This document shows, one piece after another, positions 4,432-41,431 of a stretch of 64,000 nucleotides of DNA. Both the position numbers and the translations under genes were made by a program. Under the pieces are notes generated by a model. The model saw only the letters and a program-made list of their open reading frames with translations. It did not search any database and had not been told where the DNA came from. This DNA comes from Brachybacterium subflavum (lineage in GTDB: Bacteria; Actinomycetota; Actinomycetes; Actinomycetales; Dermabacteraceae). The stretch covers positions 418,897 to 482,896 of the forward strand of contig NZ_VIGP01000002.1 of NCBI RefSeq assembly GCF_009299795.1, in the 5' to 3' direction. Every line of letters begins with the position of its first letter. Within the stretch, counting starts at the first letter, position 1.

Positions 4432-4480
4432 TTCCTGGAGCGCCACGAGCACCTGGAGCGAAGTCTCGCGCGGGGGCGAG

Positions 4481-4550
4481 CACTACGCGTAGCAGGAGGT
4501 CGGGTGACCCTCGAATATGCACGTGACCCGACCTCCCACTACGTGTAGTG
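4481..4550. repeat. Long intergenic hairpin between convergent genes
   Basis: Left arm 4481-4505 and right arm 4526-4550 pair over 25 positions with three mismatches around a 20-nt loop. Each arm also contains its own short palindrome (CTACGCGTAG on the left, near-palindromic CTACGTGTAG on the right). It lies between the convergent HAD and hypothetical genes, so a two-way terminator without a U-tract is the simplest reading. It belongs to a group of similar-looking hairpins elsewhere in this window. Confidence 0.8.
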
Positions 4551-4562
4551 ACCGGGGGCGCT

Positions 4563-16186: not shown

Positions 16187-16260
16187 CGCTCCGTAGCTCA
16201 GCCCGGTAGAGCAGCTCCCCCATAAGGAGCGTGTCGCAGGTTCGAATCCCGCCGGAGTGT
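16187..16260 (+). tRNA. tRNA with CAU anticodon (Met/Ile2-type), unusual features
   Basis: The 74-nt stretch folds as a cloverleaf: acceptor CGCTCCG/CGGAGTG (one G-U), D-stem GCTC/GAGC, anticodon stem GCTCC/GGAGC, loop CCCATAA and T-loop TTCGAAT. The anticodon CAU lies at 16221-16223. Oddities are C at position 33 instead of the near-universal U, an A-C mismatch in the T-stem (GCAGG/CCCGC), no encoded CCA, and U as discriminator. It could be a real but divergent tRNA or a decaying copy. Which amino acid it carries cannot be told from the anticodon alone. Confidence 0.65.
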
Positions 16261-16330
16261 CCGCCGTCGGCCCGGATCACCACCCACCGTGGCGAGGTTC
16301 CGGACGCCTCGGCCGCCGGAGAAGCCGGAC

Positions 16331-16658
16331 CGACCCCTTGAGTGCTGCGTAGTGGTCGTTCTGAGCGCTCATAACGACCAGTACGCAGCACTGTTCGGAT
16401 CGACACCGGGTACTCAGCACTGCACCGGCCAGCTCCGATCCCGGCCCGCCCCGGCCCCAACGCCCCGTTGAGTGCTGCGTAGCGGTCGTTCTGAGCGCCC
16501 TGAACGACCATTGCGCAGCACTGTTCGGATCGACACCGGGTACTCAGCAATGCACCGGCCAGCTCCGATCCCGGCCCGCCCCGGCCCCGACGCCCTGTTG
16601 AGTGCTACGAAGCGGTCGTTCTGAGCGCCCTTAACGACCATTGCGCAGCACTGTTCGG
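16331..16658. repeat. 130-bp tandem repeat array, each unit with a 20-bp hairpin
   Basis: Units start at 16331, 16461 and 16591 with an exact 130-bp period; the third is cut short. Each contains a hairpin: arms 16341-16360/16373-16392, 16471-16490/16503-16522 and 16601-16620/16633-16652, with 12-nt loops. The first hairpin has a single mismatch. Copies 2 and 3 have several changed positions, some kept paired as G-U. The array follows the tRNA-like gene and precedes the GTG of the next gene by about 240 bp. Confidence 0.88.
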
Positions 16659-30467: not shown

Positions 30468-30505
30468 GAAGAGCCCGCCGGGAGGATCCTCCCGGCGGGC
30501 TCTTC
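30468..30505. terminator. 38-bp perfect palindrome, bidirectional terminator
   Basis: Every position pairs about the GGATCC centre (19-bp arms). It lies between the convergent MDR (stop 30421) and ohr (stop 30539) genes and would form a strong hairpin in either transcript. A run of ten C residues (30439-30448) lies on its MDR side. Confidence 0.85.
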
Positions 30506-34657: not shown

Positions 34658-35865
34658 CGCCGGATCGAGGCCAGGTGGTCGGCGATGCGGTCGACGGCGT
34701 CGGAGAGCAGGCCGACGTCCGGCAGGGTCACCAGGCGGAAGTGGTCGGCGACCGGATAGTTGAACCCGGTCCCCTGCGTGACCAGCAGCTTCTTCGATCT
34801 CAGCAGGTCCATGGCGAACTGCTCGTCGCTCTCGATGTCGTACATCTCGGTGTCGATCTTCGGGAACATGTAGAGCGCGCCCTGGGCCTTGACGACGGAG
34901 ACCCCCGGGATCTCGCTGAGCCCGTCGTAGGCCACGTCGCGCTGGTCGCGCAGGCGCCCGCCGGGCAGCAGCAGCTGGTCGATCGACTGGTAGCCGCCGA
35001 GCGCCGTCGCCACCACGTGCTGGGCAGGGACGTTGGGGCACAGGCGCATGTTCGAGAGCACGTCGAGGCCCTCGATGAAGTTCTCGGCGTCGTCCTTCGG
35101 CCCGTACAGCGCCATCCACCCGGCGCGGAAGCCGGCCACCCTGTAGGCCTTCGAGAGCCCGTTGAAGGTGATGGTCAGCAGGTCGGGCGCGAGGGCGGCG
35201 ACATGGGTGTGGACGGCGTCGTCGTAGAGGATCTTGTCGTAGATCTCGTCGGCCAGGATCAGCAGGTCGTGCTTGCGCGCGACCTCGACGATCTCCTTCA
35301 GCACGTGCTCGGGGTAGACCGAGCCGGTGGGGTTGTTGGGGTTGATGACGACGATCGCCTTGGTGCGCTCGGTGACCTTGTCGGCCAGGTCAGAGACATC
35401 GGGCCACCAGTTCTGCTCCTCGTCGCAGCGGTAGTGCACGGCCTTCCCGCCCGCGAGCGAGACCGACGCAGTCCACAGCGGGTAGTCGGGGCTGGGCACG
35501 AGCACCTCGTCGCCGTCGTCCACAAGGGCCTGGCAGGTCATCTGGATCAGCTCGCTGACCCCGTTGCCCAGGTAGATGTCGTCGAGCTCCATCCCGGGCA
35601 TGCCCTTGGTCTGGTAGTACTGCGCGACGGCGCGGCGGGCCGAGACGATCCCCTTGGAGTCCGAGTAGCCCTGCGCGGTGGGCAGGGTGCGGATCATGTC
35701 GACGAGGATCTCGTCGGGCGCCTCGAAGCCGAACGGGGCGGGGTTGCCGATGTTCAGCTTGATGATCTTGTGGCCCTCTGCCTCCATGCGCGCTGCCTCT
35801 GCGGGGATCGGCCCGCGGATCTCGTAGCAGACGTCGCGCAGCTTGGAGGACTGGGTGAGGATCAT
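34654..35865 (-). CDS. Alanine/valine-type pyridoxal-phosphate aminotransferase
   Basis: A 403-residue class I aminotransferase of the AlaT/AvtA type, making alanine from pyruvate. Motifs are KLNIGNPAPFGFEAPDEI, AQGYSDSKGI, GNGVSELIQMTCQAL, INPNNPTGSVYP, LADEIYDKILYDD, and the PLP lysine in FNGLSKAYRVAGFRAGWM. AGGAG lies 7 nt before ATG 35865. It converges on the GNAT gene with a 4-bp CTAG encoding both stops. No paired regulator is seen. Confidence 0.92.
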   Translation of the reverse strand: MILTQSSKLRDVCYEIRGPIPAEAARMEAEGHKIIKLNIGNPAPFGFEAPDEILVDMIRTLPTAQGYSDSKGIVSARRAVAQYYQTKGMPGMELDDIYLGNGVSELIQMTCQALVDDGDEVLVPSPDYPLWTASVSLAGGKAVHYRCDEEQNWWPDVSDLADKVTERTKAIVVINPNNPTGSVYPEHVLKEIVEVARKHDLLILADEIYDKILYDDAVHTHVAALAPDLLTITFNGLSKAYRVAGFRAGWMALYGPKDDAENFIEGLDVLSNMRLCPNVPAQHVVATALGGYQSIDQLLLPGGRLRDQRDVAYDGLSEIPGVSVVKAQGALYMFPKIDTEMYDIESDEQFAMDLLRSKKLLVTQGTGFNYPVADHFRLVTLPDVGLLSDAVDRIADHLASIRR

Positions 35866-36048
35866 CGTTCGGCTCCTAGGGCTCAGGGCCCGGTTCGCGG
35901 CCGGCAGCGCGGCCGCAGCCCCGCGGGCGCGAGGCTGCGGCCAGGGTATCGCCGGCGGCCGGGCCCGCAGCACGCGCGTCTCACGAGGTGCGCTGCGGGA
36001 CCCCTCTCCTTTCACTCCGCTCGCAGCGGCCACGCCGCTCACGACCCT

Positions 36049-36104
36049 CGAGTGGTACGAAATCGTTGCCATGGCGCGCGATGGCAACGATTTCGTACCA
36101 CTCG
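36049..36104. repeat. Perfect 24-bp inverted repeat in a divergent intergenic region
   Basis: Arms 36049-36072 and 36081-36104 are exact complements around the loop GGCGCGCG. The element lies between the divergent aminotransferase and sugar-ABC promoters, where no gene ends, so a simple terminator role does not fit. It is related in sequence to the hairpin at 39935-39991 on the other side of the ABC operon. Confidence 0.93.
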
Positions 36105-36219
36105 CGGTCCGCCCGCAGTCGCGTCCGCGCTCGTCCCCGCACTCGCGTCCGAGCTCGCGTCCGCGCTCCTGTCCGAGCTGGGCCCACGGCACCCCGCGGA
36201 CGCGACTGGTGGTCGCCTC

Positions 36220-36262
36220 TTGACGCGGGCGCTCCCGCCATTTAGTTTCGTCGCGTAAGTAA
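36220..36262 (+). promoter_or_regulatory. Sugar-ABC promoter overlapped by a ROK/XylR-like operator
   Basis: TTGACG (36220-36225), 17 bp, then TAGTTT (36243-36248) makes a good sigma-70-type promoter about 290 bp before the permease gene. The -10 lies inside the dyad TTAGTTTCG-N3-CGTAAGTAA (36242-36262, 7 of 9 pairs), which resembles operators of ROK/XylR repressors (TTAGTTT...AAACTAA). The ROK gene at 40163-41431 is the obvious candidate regulator. Confidence 0.65.
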
Positions 36263-36537
36263 TCGGGTGTCGAGGTCGACTCCCCGGAACCGCCGATGCC
36301 GTCGCAGAACGCTCGCGCATCGGACGTCACCACCAGCCGCACGACGGTCCGAGCCGTCCGCACCCGCACAGCCCGCATTCGCACAGCCCACCCCCGCACA
36401 GCCCGACCCGCACAGCCCGCCCCGAACAACCCATCCGGGCCTCCCGCCCGGGCATCCCGCCTCCGCACCACCGTCGGGATCGCGGGTCCGGGCGTCGGCC
36501 GAGGGCCCCGCCCGTCGCCGCCCACGAGAGGACAACG

Positions 36538-37449
36538 ATGTCTGCCGCATCCACAGCCGGGCCTCCGCCCGCACGACGCAAGCACCGGGACGACACCCGC
36601 CTGGCGCTGCTGTTCATCCTGCCGGCGAGCGTCGGCCTGCTGGTGTTCCTCGTGTGGCCGCTACTGACGGGCCTGTACTACTCGCTCACCGAGTACTCGA
36701 TCCTCACGCCCCCGAAATGGGTGGGCCTCGAGAACTACACGAACATGCTCAGCGACCCCGTGTTCTGGAAGTCGCTGCGGGTCACCGTGCTGTACGTCGT
36801 CATCAACATCGCCGTGCAGACGGTCCTCGCGCTCCTCATCGCCGTGCTCATGCAGCGCCTCACGCAGAACACGTGGCTGCGCTCGCTCGTGCTCACCCCG
36901 TACCTGGTCTCCAACGTGGTGGCCGCGATCGTGTTCCTCTGGCTGCTGGACTCGCAGCTGGGCATCGTGAACCTGATCCTGCAGGGCATCGGCTTCGACC
37001 CGGTCTCCTTCTGGGCCAACGAGAAGTGGGTGATCCCCACGATCGCGCTGGTCAACGTGTGGCGGCACATGGGATACACGGCCCTGCTGCTGTTCGCGGG
37101 CCTGCAGTCGATCCCCGAGCAGCTCTACGAGGCGGCGCGCACCGAGGGCGCCGGCGAGTGGCAGCTGTTCCGCCGCATCACCCTGCCGCTGCTGCGGCCC
37201 ATCCTCGCGCTCGTGCTGATCATGTCGATCATCGGCAGCTTCCAGGTCTTCGACACCGTCTCGGTGACCACGCAGGGCGGTCCGTCGGACGCCTCGAAGG
37301 TGCTGCAGATGTACATCTACGAGAACGCCTTCGGGCAGTACCAGTTCGGGTACGCCTCCGCGCTCTCGGTGGCGCTGCTGGTGATCCTCATGGTCATCAC
37401 CTTCGCCCAGTACTTCCTGACCCGTGCCGGCCAGTCGGACCTGGACTGA
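36538..37449 (+). CDS. Sugar ABC transporter permease (MalF type)
   Basis: A 303-residue membrane component of a carbohydrate uptake (CUT1) importer, with six helices after a short charged N-terminus. The EAA loop that contacts the ATPase is EAARTEGAGEWQLFRRITLP, and TQGGPSDASKVLQMYIYENA near the end is typical of MalF/UgpA-like permeases. GAGAGGA precedes the ATG. It is the first gene of a permease-permease-binding protein operon. There is no ATPase gene in the operon, so a shared MsiK-type ATPase elsewhere in the genome is expected. Confidence 0.92.
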   Translation: MSAASTAGPPPARRKHRDDTRLALLFILPASVGLLVFLVWPLLTGLYYSLTEYSILTPPKWVGLENYTNMLSDPVFWKSLRVTVLYVVINIAVQTVLALLIAVLMQRLTQNTWLRSLVLTPYLVSNVVAAIVFLWLLDSQLGIVNLILQGIGFDPVSFWANEKWVIPTIALVNVWRHMGYTALLLFAGLQSIPEQLYEAARTEGAGEWQLFRRITLPLLRPILALVLIMSIIGSFQVFDTVSVTTQGGPSDASKVLQMYIYENAFGQYQFGYASALSVALLVILMVITFAQYFLTRAGQSDLD

Positions 37450-37461
37450 GAGGACGCCCAG

Positions 37462-38472
37462 ATGAGCACCGCCACTCCCGCCGTCGGCCCGTCGGCCGGC
37501 TCCCCCGCCGGCACCGCCGGCACCGCCGGCACCGCGCCGACCGGCGCCCCCGAGGGCCCGTCGGCACCGTCCGCCTCCGAGTCCGCGCGCCGCCGCCGGC
37601 CCCTGTCGCCCGGGCGGATCCTCGCCTGGATCGTCATGATCGTGATCCTCCTGGTGACGCTGTTCCCCTTCTACTGGATGCTGCGCACGGCGCTGTCCTC
37701 GAACACGGCGCTGGCGACCGACCCGACCAGCCTGCTGCCGGTGGACTTCTCGCTCGGCGGCTTCGAGCGCGTGTTCGGGCTGCAGGACGTGGAGACCGCG
37801 GTCTCCCAGGGCGGCTCGGGCGCGTCGATCAACTTCTGGCGCTACCTGCTGAACTCGGTGATCGTCGCGACCGTGATCACCGTGGTGCAGACCTTCAGCT
37901 GCGCGATGGCCGCCTACGCCTTCTCACGCCTGCGCTGGAGGGGCCGCGAGACCGTGTTCCTCATCTTCCTGGGCGCGATGATGATCCCGCAGATCTTCAC
38001 GCTGCTGCCCAACTTCATCCTCATCAAGAACCTGCATCTGGTGGACACGCTCCTGGGCATCATGCTGCCCACCCTGTTCATCTCGCCGTTCGCGATCTTC
38101 TTCCTGCGCCAGTTCTTCAACAACATCTCGCGGGAGGTCGAGGAGGCGGCGCTCATCGACGGCGCCTCGAAGCCGCGCGTGTTCTTCACGCTGATCCTGC
38201 CGATCAGCTCCGCGCCGCTGGCGACGCTCGCGCTGCTGACGTACATGACGGCGTGGAACGAGTACTTCTGGTCGCTGATGGTCTCCTACACGGACTCCTC
38301 GCGCGTGCTCACCGTCGCGCTCGGCGTCTTCCGCGCACAGTCGCCCCAGACGGGCACGGACTGGGCGGGGCTGATGGCCGCGACGCTGGTCGCGGCGGCG
38401 CCCATGCTGATCCTCTTCGTGCTGTTCGCGAAGCGGATCGTGAACTCCATCGGCTTCAGCGGGATCAAGTGA
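37462..38472 (+). CDS. Sugar ABC transporter permease (MalG type)
   Basis: A 336-residue partner permease. A 50-residue cytoplasmic Gly/Thr/Ala/Pro-rich leader with a GTAGTAGTA repeat precedes six helices. WMLRTALSSNTALATDP and the EAA loop VEEAALIDGASKPRVFFTLI are family signatures, and the end FAKRIVNSIGFSGIK is typical of MalG. It begins 12 nt after the MalF-type gene and ends 11 nt before the binding protein, indicating one operon. Confidence 0.92.
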   Translation: MSTATPAVGPSAGSPAGTAGTAGTAPTGAPEGPSAPSASESARRRRPLSPGRILAWIVMIVILLVTLFPFYWMLRTALSSNTALATDPTSLLPVDFSLGGFERVFGLQDVETAVSQGGSGASINFWRYLLNSVIVATVITVVQTFSCAMAAYAFSRLRWRGRETVFLIFLGAMMIPQIFTLLPNFILIKNLHLVDTLLGIMLPTLFISPFAIFFLRQFFNNISREVEEAALIDGASKPRVFFTLILPISSAPLATLALLTYMTAWNEYFWSLMVSYTDSSRVLTVALGVFRAQSPQTGTDWAGLMAATLVAAAPMLILFVLFAKRIVNSIGFSGIK

Positions 38473-38483
38473 GGGACGCACCC

Positions 38484-39869
38484 ATGACACGCACGACACC
38501 TCGTTCCCCCGGCCGCGCGCTCAGCCGTCGGTCCCTGCTCGGCGGCACCGCCGCCCTCGGCGCCGCGGCCGCGACCGGCGCCCTCGCCGGCTGCTCGGGC
38601 GACGCCGCCGCGAGCGGCACGACGCGGCTGGACTACTGGCTGTGGGACGCCAACCAGCTGCCCGGCTACTCCCAGGCGATCGACCTCTTCATGGAGCGCA
38701 ACCCCGACCTCGACGTGCGCATCACGCAGATGGGCTGGGACGACTACTGGACCAAGCTCACCGCGAGCTTCGTCGCCGGGGCCGGGCCCGACGTCTTCAC
38801 CGACCATCTGGGCCGGTATCCGGAGTTCCTCACGCTCGACGTGATCGTGCCCCTGGACGACTTCGATCCGATCGCCGCGATCCCCGACGACCAGTACCAG
38901 CCGGGCCTGCAGGAGCTGTGGACCGGGCAGGACGGCAAGCGCTACGGCCTGCCCAAGGACTACGACACGATCGCGCTGATGTACGACGCGAAGACGCTGG
39001 AGGAGGCGGGCCTCTCCGCCGACGACCTCGAGGGCCTGGACTGGAACCCGCAGGACGGCGGGAGCTTCGAGAAGGTCCTCGCGCGTCTGGCGAAGGACAC
39101 CAGCGGCAAGCGCGGGGACGAGAAGGGCTTCGACCCGAAGAGCGTCGCCCGCTACGCGCTCGCGGCCGACCCGGCCACCGACTACGTCGGCCAGACCACC
39201 TGGTCGCCCTTCGCCTTCTCCACCGGGTGGACGTTCACCGACGAGAAGACCTGGGGCACCCGCTTCAACTACGACGACGAGGACTTCCAGGCGACCCTGG
39301 ACTGGTTCTTCGGTCTCGTGGACAAGGGCCTGCTCGCGCCCTTCGGCCTGTTCGGCGACTCCAGCCCCGCCGAGACCCAGATCCAGGGCGGCAAGGCGGC
39401 CGTCGCCCTCGCCGGCTCGTGGATGATCGGCACCTATGCGGGCCTCGAGGGCGTGGACCTGGGCATCGCTTCCCTGCCGTCCGGGCCGATCGGGCACCCG
39501 ATGTCGATGTTCAACGGCCTGGGCGACTCGATCTCCTCGCAGTCGGAGCACAAGGAGGACGCCGCGCGCCTGGTGGCGTTCCTGGGCTCGGACGACGCCC
39601 AGGAGATCATCGGTTCGCGCGCCATCGTCTTCCCCGCCTCCGACGCCGGCACCGCCGCCGCCGTGAAGGCCTACGAGGACAAGGGCCTGGACGTCTCCCC
39701 GTACACGGATCGCGTGAAGAAGGGCGAGACGGGGCTCTACCCGCTGGTCGAGAACGCCGCCCAGATCATGTCGATCATGCAGCCGGCCTTCGACGACCTC
39801 TGGATGCGCAAGACCAAGGCCGACTCCTTCACCGCCTACAACGACAAGGTCAACGCCCTGTTCGAGTGA
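38484..39869 (+). CDS. Sugar ABC transporter substrate-binding lipoprotein
   Basis: A 461-residue extracytoplasmic binding protein. The signal contains SRRSLLGGTAALGAA (a Tat-like twin-arginine) and a lipobox LAGC; the lipidated cysteine is about residue 37. The mature protein follows the family-1 binding fold: LDYWLWDANQ, AGAGPDVFTDHLGRYPEF, GLPKDYDTIALMYDAKTLEEAG and ALAGSWMIG. The sugar is not predictable; a disaccharide or oligosaccharide is usual. It is last in the operon and is followed by the long hairpin at 39935. Confidence 0.92.
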   Translation: MTRTTPRSPGRALSRRSLLGGTAALGAAAATGALAGCSGDAAASGTTRLDYWLWDANQLPGYSQAIDLFMERNPDLDVRITQMGWDDYWTKLTASFVAGAGPDVFTDHLGRYPEFLTLDVIVPLDDFDPIAAIPDDQYQPGLQELWTGQDGKRYGLPKDYDTIALMYDAKTLEEAGLSADDLEGLDWNPQDGGSFEKVLARLAKDTSGKRGDEKGFDPKSVARYALAADPATDYVGQTTWSPFAFSTGWTFTDEKTWGTRFNYDDEDFQATLDWFFGLVDKGLLAPFGLFGDSSPAETQIQGGKAAVALAGSWMIGTYAGLEGVDLGIASLPSGPIGHPMSMFNGLGDSISSQSEHKEDAARLVAFLGSDDAQEIIGSRAIVFPASDAGTAAAVKAYEDKGLDVSPYTDRVKKGETGLYPLVENAAQIMSIMQPAFDDLWMRKTKADSFTAYNDKVNALFE

Positions 39870-39934
39870 AGGGCGGGGCGCGGCGCGACTCCACGGCCCC
39901 TCGGTTCCGCGCTGGACGCACGGACTGGACGCAC

Positions 39935-39991
39935 CGAGAGGTGAGAAGTCGTCGTCATAAGGGCGGTTTGACGACGTCTTCTCACCTCTCG
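39935..39991. repeat. 23-bp inverted repeat after the sugar-ABC operon
   Basis: Arms 39935-39957 and 39969-39991 pair at 22 of 23 positions around an 11-nt loop. It lies between the convergent binding-protein and ROK genes, as a terminator might. Its arms align with those of the hairpin at 36049-36104 (18 of 24 positions in the left arm), and all six left-arm changes are compensated in the right arm. Confidence 0.9.
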
Positions 39992-40133
39992 CGGGCGCCT
40001 CATGCATTCCTTCGACGCCGCATCTCGCGCCGGCGACCTGTCGTCATGGCTCCATCAGGAGCCGATGGTGTGCCGCCCGAGCTCGCCGCGGCGCCGCTCT
40101 GACCTCACCGCCCGCGCTGGGCCCGAACCCGCA

Positions 40134-40152
40134 GCCGCCGTCGTGCGGCGGC
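40134..40152 (-). terminator. Small hairpin after the ROK gene
   Basis: GCCGCCG-TCGTG-CGGCGGC is a perfect 7-bp stem, 10 nt beyond the ROK stop on the minus strand. It is a likely terminator for that gene. Confidence 0.55.
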
Positions 40153-40162
40153 GCGCCGCCTC

Positions 40163-41431
40163 TCAGGCGTCGTCGCGCCCGCCGATGAACCGGCGCAGGG
40201 CGATCACGGCGGCGCCGCGGGTCCAGTCGTCGAAGTCGGCGGGGAGGAAGCGCACGAGCACGTCGCGCTGGACGCGGGCGAGGTGGGCGCGCAGGGCGAC
40301 GTCGAACTCGTCGCCCACGCGCAGGAGGTCCACGGCCTCGCCGCCCAGGATCAGGGCGTCCGGGTCGAGCACGCCGACGAGGCCGGCGCCCGCGACGGCG
40401 ACCGCGTGGGCGACATCGGCGGCGACCTCGAGGGCGGCCGGATCACCGGCACGGGCCGCGCGCACGAGGGCATCGAGCCCGTGCGCCTCCGATGCCCCGG
40501 GGGCCCCGCCGGCGCCGACCCCACTGTCCGGCTCCGACACCCCGGTGACACCGCGCTCCCGCGCCGCGTCGAGGATGTGCGCGGTGCTCGCGACCTGGCG
40601 CAGCAGCACGCCGCGGCCGTCGCGGGTGATGGTGGGCAGGGTGCCGGTGAGGCCGGCGAGATGGGTGCGGCCGCGGTGGACCTCGGCGTCCTCGACGCTG
40701 CCGACGCCCACGCCCGCGCCGATGGTGATGACGGCGAAGGACCGGTGGCGTCGGCCGATGCCGAACCAGGCGTGGCCCTCGAGCAGGGCATGGAAGTCGT
40801 TGCTGACCGTCACCGGCAGGCCCAGGCGCCCCTCGAGGTCGGCGCGCAGGTGGACAGGTTCGCTCCAGCTGAGCATGGCGGAGGAGGCGACGGTGCCGTG
40901 GTCATCGACCTGCGCGCCGATGCCCACGCCGATCCCGGCCACCCGCGGATGGGCGGCGAGCAGCGGTTCGCACAGCTCGAGGGCAGTCGCGATGATCGTG
41001 GCCGGCTCGACGTCGTCGAGCTCCCTGCTGACCTCCTCGAGCGCCGTGCCGCGCACGGTGACGACGGCGGCGTAGACGCTCTGGGCGGTGATCTTCACGC
41101 CGATGAACACAGCGTGGTCCTCGTCGACGTCGAGGGGCTGCTGAGGGCGTCCCTTGGTCTGCATCTGCGGGGGCAGCTCGCGCAGCAGACCGTTCTCGAG
41201 CAGCTCGCGGGTGACGCGGGTGAGGGTCGGCCCCGAGAGCCCCAGCAGCCGCGCGAGGTCGGTGCGGGCGTGCGGGCCGTAGCGGACCAGGTGCTCGTAG
41301 ACCTCGCCGGCGGTCGCGGAGCAGGGGGCGCTCGGCGGCACATGGCCCGCGGCCGCGCCTTCCGCACCCGGCGCGCCTACCGCGTCCGCCGCGCCCGGCG
41401 CGCCCGGCGCCGACTCTCCCCCGCTGTCCAT
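40163..41431 (-). CDS. ROK-family transcriptional regulator
   Basis: A 422-residue sugar-responsive repressor candidate. After a 35-residue Ala/Gly/Pro-rich leader, a winged helix (TDLARLLGLSGPTLTRVTRE, then LLENGLLREL) is followed by a ROK sugar-kinase-like domain with VFIGVKITAQSVYAAVV, GIGVGIGAQVD, VTVSNDFHALLEGHAWFG and ITIGAGVGVG. The usual ROK zinc motif CxCGxxGCxE is absent; the equivalent stretch reads TRDGRGVLLRQVAST. It sits next to the sugar ABC operon, whose promoter carries a ROK-like palindrome, so it probably controls that operon. Confidence 0.88.
   Translation of the reverse strand: MDSGGESAPGAPGAADAVGAPGAEGAAAGHVPPSAPCSATAGEVYEHLVRYGPHARTDLARLLGLSGPTLTRVTRELLENGLLRELPPQMQTKGRPQQPLDVDEDHAVFIGVKITAQSVYAAVVTVRGTALEEVSRELDDVEPATIIATALELCEPLLAAHPRVAGIGVGIGAQVDDHGTVASSAMLSWSEPVHLRADLEGRLGLPVTVSNDFHALLEGHAWFGIGRRHRSFAVITIGAGVGVGSVEDAEVHRGRTHLAGLTGTLPTITRDGRGVLLRQVASTAHILDAARERGVTGVSEPDSGVGAGGAPGASEAHGLDALVRAARAGDPAALEVAADVAHAVAVAGAGLVGVLDPDALILGGEAVDLLRVGDEFDVALRAHLARVQRDVLVRFLPADFDDWTRGAAVIALRRFIGGRDDA

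What the first reader, a model, noticed from the sequence alone, without database searches (positions are those of the whole stretch)
36049..39991. Two related hairpins flank the sugar-ABC operon and differ by fully compensated base changes
Seen: the left arms at 36049-36072 and 39935-39957 (plus the adjacent T) share a CGAGNGGTNNGAARTCGT-type pattern, 18 of 24 positions. All six differences in the left arms are mirrored by complementary changes in the right arms; one further right-arm change leaves a single mismatch. Loops are unrelated (8 and 11 nt). Established: such covariation is the classic sign of a conserved structure (RNA hairpin or DNA cruciform) rather than a conserved sequence. Inference: a dispersed structural element is present, not a one-off terminator, because the 36049 copy lies between divergent genes where no transcript should end.
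Basis: partly seen in the sequence, partly recalled or inferred. Interest (0 to 1): 0.78.

Follow-up and report, generated by a model that had tools for sequence, protein, structure and literature searches.

The report
Nuclease genes bracketed by matching hairpins
The two hairpins belong to families of repeated DNA hairpins scattered through a Brachybacterium genome, each family sharing its sequence with hairpins beside one particular nuclease gene; that nuclease likely spreads and rewrites its own hairpins, which would be a counterpart of the known REP-transposase system built on an unrelated enzyme.

Summary
A covariance model gives 68 two-strand matches in this 3.99-Mb Brachybacterium genome, about 34 places. 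They fall into stem families: S1 (36049), S2 (39935) and S3 (16339-16654, three copies); a fourth, S4 (4478-4553), has 13 places. Each family also stands beside a different paralog of one nuclease type, with an AbiEi-like N-terminal and a Vsr/homing-endonuclease-like C-terminal domain. Of 82 such genes found by protein in this and related genomes, 24 have hairpins of one and the same stem on both sides; of 324 control genes, none. Different nucleases have different stems: 2 of 485 unit pairs below 60% protein identity share one. At one duf503-purL junction 19 of 29 readable genomes carry the nuclease (17 with both hairpins detected) and 7 carry one hairpin instead. The REP transposase family (Y1_Tnp) was found in 0 of 38 genus genomes. 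My reading is a REP/RAYT-like system with an unrelated nuclease. That the nuclease binds, cuts and spreads the hairpins is inferred; a terminator role is untested.

The parts
36049..36104 (.). Hairpin of stem family S1 (24-bp perfect arms, 8-nt loop), between a divergent aminotransferase gene and the sugar-ABC operon; matching nuclease at G000:C22:66337-67308
   Evidence: orthologous hairpin in G037 (54 of 56 bases identical); no R2 hairpin in the corresponding gap of G035
39935..39991 (.). Hairpin of stem family S2 (23-bp arms, one mismatch, 11-nt loop), between convergent solute-binding-protein and ROK genes; matching nuclease at G000:C12:333327-334280
   Evidence: the orthologous site in G037 and G035 holds an S1-type hairpin instead
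16339..16394 (.). Hairpin of stem family S3, first of three in a tandem array of about 130-bp repeats beside a tRNA gene; matching nuclease at G000:C12:623280-624191
16469..16524 (.). Hairpin of stem family S3, second of the array
16599..16654 (.). Hairpin of stem family S3, third of the array, more decayed
4478..4553 (.). Hairpin of stem family S4; 13 places in the genome at E below 1e-5, two of them flanking the nuclease at G000:C12:539102
   Evidence: a hairpin was detected in 10 of 12 S4 loci looked at

Best explanation
The hairpins are dispersed copies of palindromes whose stem sequence also stands beside one AbiEi-Vsr-type nuclease gene per family, and that nuclease is predicted to recognise, cut and so likely spread and homogenise its own hairpins, as RAYT transposases are thought to do for REP elements. 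Shown here: families S1 to S4 each share their stem with hairpins beside a different nuclease paralog (both sides for S1 and S4, one side for S2 and S3). In this and related genomes, matched hairpin pairs bracket this gene type far more often than other genes, and different nucleases have different stems. The single hairpin and the hairpin-nuclease-hairpin unit are alternative occupants of the same gene-end site at the one junction examined. Inferred: the AbiEi-like domain binds the roughly 23-bp arms, the Vsr/homing-endonuclease-like domain cuts at or near them, and repair from another copy inserts or overwrites hairpins, and sometimes the whole unit. Arm-to-arm correction of this kind would produce the covariation. 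Untested: once in place between gene ends, the hairpins probably also stop transcription.
Against: No binding, cleavage or movement was observed. 58 of the 82 protein-first genes lack a matched pair (49 of 82 have a hairpin on at least one side; 72 of 324 controls do), and the S2 and S3 nucleases show their hairpin on one side only. Most of the strong stem-nuclease correlation came from one orthologous locus; without it r is 0.41, and 6 of 11 unit pairs above 60% identity do not share a stem. Outside the order the association nearly vanishes: 1 of 30 PF18741 proteins (1 of 32 with two from the order). The one clear empty site (G037 L087:9926 against G000 L109) differs by roughly 175 bp, not by a clean hairpin with a target duplication. 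Most S1 sites examined are shared between species, so present-day insertion is slow or stopped. A Vsr-type nuclease without a strand-transfer activity is not known to me to move DNA on its own; host recombination must be invoked. Only the best of five structure models was confident (mean pLDDT 78.6 against 57-61).
Confidence: 0.63

Rival explanations
1. The hairpins are ordinary bidirectional transcription terminators of a high-GC genome: selection keeps only the fold, and the nuclease genes are merely insulated by terminators.
For: Many copies lie between convergent gene ends or just downstream of stops (17 of 45 places convergent, 17 co-directional, 4 divergent, 6 inside frames, 1 unclear; mechanical gene calls). 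At the duf503-purL junction the hairpin fills the short gap between converging stops.
Against: Insulating terminators need not share sequence, yet 24 of 26 nuclease genes with hairpins on both sides carry matching ones. Stems are shared genome-wide within a family. No T-run follows the copies printed (read by eye), and a terminator scan of 35800-40300 lists 3 sites, none at the two hairpins, though its loop limit of 8 excludes 39935. 36049 lies between divergent genes.
Confidence: 0.16
2. The hairpins are binding sites of the AbiEi-like domain: flanking copies autoregulate the nuclease gene and dispersed copies are a regulon or self-marks that restrain the nuclease; spread is not by the nuclease.
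For: AbiEi antitoxins autoregulate through two 23-bp inverted repeats 3 bp apart (PMC7319586 passages); the arms here are about 23 bp with 8-11 bp between. The N-terminal fold and profiles are AbiEi-like.
Against: One of the two flanking hairpins sits at the 3' end of the gene, commonly within a few bases of the stop codon, an odd place for an operator. Dispersed copies lie mostly at gene ends, not promoters. It does not explain the tandem S3 array or the G037 doublets.
Confidence: 0.1
3. The palindromes are passive repeats kept perfect by replication template switching between arms (quasipalindrome correction); the nuclease link is historical.
For: Paired changes with few intermediates: L119 against its G037 ortholog differs at three fully compensated pairs plus one G.T pair. 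G.T pairs are not favoured in 11 transcription-oriented copies (8 G.T, 13 A.C).
Against: Does not explain matched pairs around nucleases with a different stem for each, or genome-specific dialects at sites shared between species.
Confidence: 0.09
4. The hairpins are classical REP elements moved by a RAYT (Y1 tyrosine transposase).
For: Same layout as published for REP-RAYT: gene flanked by two palindromes, dispersed copies, co-evolution (PMC2817692 abstract, passages and Discussion).
Against: Y1_Tnp PF01797 hits 0 of 38 genus genomes while the same search rings in 5 of 14 control genomes; no GTAG-type head seen in the flanking bases.
Confidence: 0.02

Closest known systems
REP elements with RAYT transposases (REPtrons), PMC2817692, PMC3733652
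   Same: Enzyme gene bracketed by two palindromes, one often right at the stop codon; dispersed copies in intergenic spaces; several families per genome each with its own enzyme; palindromy kept by compensated changes; some families clustered near the enzyme gene (8 of 9 S2 copies on the contig that holds the S2 nuclease).
   Different: Enzyme is an AbiEi-Vsr-type fusion, not a Y1 HUH transposase (found in 0 of 38 genus genomes); no GTAG head; stems near perfect, about 23 bp; host is Actinomycetota; 7 to 14 copies per stem family were located here, where the RAYT paper speaks of over 100 REPs per genome.
Free-standing EDxHD/Vsr-type homing endonucleases (I-Bth0305I)
   Same: Predicted C-terminal domain matches the I-Bth0305I catalytic domain and Vsr.
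   Different: Fused to an AbiEi-like domain; sits at gene ends with matched hairpins; cleavage target unknown.
Type IV toxin-antitoxin regulator AbiEi / Rv2827c
   Same: N-terminal half matches AbiEi by profile and fold; AbiEi binds 23-bp inverted repeats (PMC7319586, passages).
   Different: One gene lies between the hairpins in the units read; a nuclease domain follows in the same chain.
DNA uptake sequences as inverted-pair terminators with species dialects (recalled, not checked by a call)
   Same: Genome-specific dialects and inverted repeats at gene ends.
   Different: Here single arms are rare: 4 found, all within about 250 bp of a hairpin; copies are tens, not thousands; linked to a nuclease gene.

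Membership tests
REP/RAYT (REPtron) | Y1 tyrosine (HUH) transposase gene | tested here: not met
   PF01797 in 0 of 38 genus genomes at E 0.001; control rings in 5 of 14
REP/RAYT (REPtron) | GTAG/GGAG head 5' of the palindrome | tested here: not met
   no such conserved tetranucleotide in the flanking bases of the copies printed, read by eye
REP/RAYT (REPtron) | enzyme gene flanked by two copies of the palindrome | tested here: met
   24 of 82 protein-first genes, 32 of 95 in all, against 0 of 324 controls
REP/RAYT (REPtron) | dispersed copies of the flanking palindrome in the same genome | tested here: met
   S1-S3 about 34 places together, S4 13
REP/RAYT (REPtron) | co-variation of palindrome with its enzyme | tested here: met
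   Mantel r 0.41 over 32 units, 0 of 2000 permutations; 0.84 over 39 units that include 13 orthologs of one locus
Vsr/EDxHD homing endonuclease | fold of the catalytic domain | tested here: met
Vsr/EDxHD homing endonuclease | conserved acidic/histidine active-site positions | tested here: inconclusive
   D251, E262, H268, D277 invariant in 8 of 8 aligned proteins; not superposed on known active sites
Vsr/EDxHD homing endonuclease | site-specific cleavage and homing | not testable with these tools
   needs purified protein
Type IV toxin-antitoxin (AbiE) | AbiEi-like antitoxin domain | tested here: met
Type IV toxin-antitoxin (AbiE) | AbiEii nucleotidyltransferase toxin partner | tested here: inconclusive
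   one gene only between the hairpins in the 8 units aligned, and duf503 and purL as neighbours at the junction; no search for the toxin family was run
Known Rfam RNA families | match at gathering score | tested here: not met
   only a tRNA in the window
Intrinsic terminator | T-run after the hairpin | tested here: not met
   flanks by eye; scan of 35800-40300 lists 3 terminator-like sites, none at the two hairpins (loop limit 8); U-less termination cannot be tested here

The most novel reading that the evidence does not exclude
A new class of mobile DNA in Actinomycetota: AbiEi-Vsr fusion nucleases that home into gene-end palindromes. The AbiEi domain reads the roughly 23-bp arms, the nuclease cuts, and repair copies either the hairpin alone or the whole hairpin-nuclease-hairpin unit. 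Each nuclease thereby rewrites its hairpins genome-wide into its own dialect, and rival families displace one another at the same junctions.
Probability: 0.48. Interest if true: 0.92.

Novelty: categorically new. Interest (0 to 1): 0.86.

Why it matters
REP elements and RAYTs are described as palindromes with a tyrosine transposase (PMC2817692). The same layout here, built on an unrelated nuclease, would mean that dispersed palindromes with a resident enzyme arose more than once. It would also suggest a function for actinobacterial proteins of the DUF559/MTES_1575 type, of which the 5 tested match no NCBIfam model. It offers a cheap direct test: does each nuclease bind and cut only its own hairpin? 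The paired changes that standard tools read as RNA covariation may here come from DNA-level copying, a caution for RNA-motif surveys.

Tried and rejected
Replication terminus. Hits in G014, G016 and G037 seemed concentrated away from coordinate 0, which suggested a terminus signal. I dropped it: S2 copies cluster on the contig of their nuclease (8 of 9 on C12, P about 1e-5 for a contig of 18.7% of the genome), which explains local clustering better; no origin or dif site was located.

REP/RAYT. Rejected for lack of PF01797. Arms as ends of an ordinary transposon. In the 859 kb scanned with five arm queries, the only single arms with 4 or fewer mismatches were 4, all within about 250 bp of a hairpin. 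Clean insertion with target duplication. Not seen at the one clear empty site. RNA versus DNA from wobble counts. Over 101 copies G.T 60 and A.C 59, but orientation was arbitrary, so that count cannot decide; the oriented subset is small.

Hairpins at pairs of other genes. In G014, pairs also flank a methyltransferase-like and an acetyltransferase-like frame (names by eye), so a pair alone does not prove a nuclease unit; the census carries the claim. An early note said that other DUF559 paralogs are not near hairpins; that was true only of the R2 family and was overturned. An early note counted four compensated changes at L119; it is three plus one G.T pair. The first Mantel result (r 0.84) rested largely on 13 orthologs of the purL locus; with one representative r is 0.41. 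Breadth: 1 of 32 proteins. Literature listings without a relevant report: (0 papers); none of the listings showed DUF559-type nucleases linked with hairpins. The claim of no prior report rests on those searches of one open-access library and on recall.

Limits. The genome search scores only part of its candidates per genome, so copy numbers are lower bounds, and listings are capped. The G037 and G035 stretches were chosen because they hold hairpins, so 'shared by species' is biased upward. The dialect count used a stem filter that let one S3 copy in and missed one S1 copy in G000; the share stays 1 of 14. Control genes come from Brachybacterium stretches partly chosen for hairpins. Rows dropped: of 61 PF04480 rows, 51 were examined (9 of the 10 left out have frames of 1400 or more codons, 1 is short); of 37 genomes with an S1-nuclease homolog 30 gave loci; 3 of those loci, cut by contig ends, were left out (L262, L278, L284), and later rows for a gene already listed were not counted twice; one search used 39 of 49 units (5 not located by tblastn, 5 without a pair under its rules); one search read 30 of 41 genomes, one cut by a contig end; the 32 proteins are part of the listing.
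Full report
What was checked. Both hairpins exist as described. The window lies in a genome of 3.99 Mb, 25 contigs; the closest named records found with a neighbouring protein are Brachybacterium, and one relative used below (G035) has a contig of the same length as one of B. halotolerans MASK1Z-5, an identification by length only. Rfam has nothing here but a tRNA.

A family, not a pair. A covariance model from three copies read on both strands (R1) found further copies in the genome. On 27 own-genome copies, 21 of 23 stem pairs have changes on both sides, 94.2% of cells pair (76.8% after shuffling), covariation score 0.503 against 0.187, and sliding the register destroys it. A second model (R2) gave 68 matches over two strands in the genome, about 34 places, of which I read 30; six genus relatives gave 35-78 matches and the other 31 gave 0-15 (26 of 38 genomes with any match). 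Stems fall into S1 (as at 36049, 14 copies read), S2 (as at 39935, 9) and S3 (as at 16339-16654, 7). A fourth family, S4 (4478-4553), has 13 places.

Sites are old, stems are not. G037 is 88-94% identical over aligned stretches. Seventeen of 27 own hairpins had both flanks in the G037 stretches fetched, and 17 of these 17 sites hold a hairpin there; the other ten lacked flanks in what was fetched, and the stretches were chosen around hairpins, so this share is biased upward. Stems at the same sites differ: 39935 is S2 here but S1-type in G037 and G035. Within S1, stem positions 5-7 read AAG in 12 of 14 copies of G035, 11 of 19 of G037 and 1 of 14 here. At one site G037 has a doublet (AAG type and TGG type), this genome has a TGG type and G035 an AAG type. 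Some changes arose in place with pairing kept: L119 against its ortholog has three fully compensated pairs and one G.T pair.

The enzyme. A search of 297 genomes of the order with R2 (20 with a match at E 1e-6) turned up hairpin pairs about 1 kb apart. In the units read, one gene of about 290-330 codons lies between them. Its protein has an AbiEi-like N-terminal part and a C-terminal part like MTES_1575 and DUF559 (below Pfam cut-offs; AbiEi by PADLOC; no NCBIfam model). A model built on eight such proteins (mean pLDDT 78.6; the other four models 57-61) matches the I-Bth0305I homing-endonuclease domain and Vsr in its C-terminal part and AbiEi in its N-terminal part.

The pairing is general. 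A first test of 51 of the 61 PF04480 hits showed hairpins on both sides in 19 and matching stems in 18. The best homolog of the S1 nuclease in 30 genus genomes gave 12 and 11, and 23 further homologs 4 and 4. One run with equal criteria over 95 distinct genes, of which 82 were found by protein and not through a hairpin, gave 24 of 82 with matched pairs and 26 of 82 with any hairpin on both sides. Control genes of 200-450 codons in held Brachybacterium stretches gave 0 and 3 of 324. Fifty-eight of the 82 have no matched pair, so the link is frequent, not obligate. Orthologs are counted apart, so the P value (1e-18) is too small.

Each nuclease has its own stem. In 32 units with a matched pair, one taken from the purL locus, the two hairpins of a unit score 22-70. 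Hairpins of different units reach 20 in 2 of 485 pairs below 60% protein identity and in 5 of 11 above; Mantel r 0.41, 0 of 2000 permutations. An earlier run with 13 purL orthologs gave r 0.84, which overstates the trend.

One family, one nuclease, in the window's own genome. S1 brackets C22:66337; S2 lies 165 bp upstream of C12:333327; S3 lies 197 bp downstream of C12:623280, with two S3 copies downstream of its G037 ortholog; S4 brackets C12:539102; a further stem brackets C1:91923.

Unit and single hairpin trade places. At the junction of duf503 and purL in another genus (unnamed, g6), 30 loci of 41 genomes were read. One is cut by a contig end. Nineteen carry the nuclease, 17 of them with both hairpins detected. 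Ten carry no nuclease, and in seven of these a single hairpin of different stem sequence fills the same short gap. Whether those stems have nucleases of their own was not sought.

Mechanism. What is shown is association, a stem for each nuclease, and interchange at one junction. Inferred is that the AbiEi-like part binds the arms (AbiEi binds two 23-bp inverted repeats, PMC7319586, passages seen) and the Vsr-like part cuts, with host repair copying hairpins. This would account for spread, for dialects at shared sites, for the S1/S2 difference at 39935, and for arm-to-arm agreement. A terminator role would fit the preference for gene ends (17 convergent, 17 co-directional, 4 divergent, 6 inside frames and 1 unclear of 45 places, mechanical gene calls) but is untested; a pattern scan finds no T-tailed terminator at either hairpin.

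Known systems. The closest is REP-RAYT (PMC2817692: abstract, passages and Discussion seen; PMC3733652: passages). The layout is the same, the enzyme is not: Y1_Tnp is in 0 of 38 genus genomes. Searches for DUF559 or MTES_1575 with hairpins, palindromes or inverted repeats listed no report of this link. Beyond the order it is rare: 1 of 30 PF18741 proteins, or 1 of 32 with two from the order.

Noticed in passing
window 16187-16654: A tRNA gene is followed by tandem repeats of about 130 bp, each holding an S3 hairpin.
   Followed up: partly
window 30468-30505: A perfect 17-bp GC-rich hairpin with a 4-nt loop, not matched to the families described, looks like an ordinary terminator.
   Followed up: no
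L232 1589-4316 (G016): The nuclease matches in two pieces beside its hairpin, as if broken, with an IS30-like transposase frame (named by eye) just downstream.
   Followed up: no
L117 9598-13033 (G000) against L094 (G037): About 3.2 kb more in G000 than in G037 begins near an S1 hairpin, suggesting that hairpin sites may also attract other insertions.
   Followed up: partly
L083/L084 19351-21594 (G037, joined coordinates) and L102 18141 (G000): G037 has two S1 hairpins around a 637-codon frame where G000 has one hairpin and a short gap: possible gain or loss by recombination between hairpins.
   Followed up: partly
L156 19238-19319 and L162 9741-9798: Long hairpins of other stem sequences in Brachybacterium sp. 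EE-P12 and B. endophyticum, partners not sought.
   Followed up: no
L116 9337-10311 (G000) against L093 (G037): The flank holding the S1 nuclease gene aligns at 78% while the other flank of the hairpin aligns at 93%, as if the nuclease evolves faster than its neighbours.
   Followed up: partly
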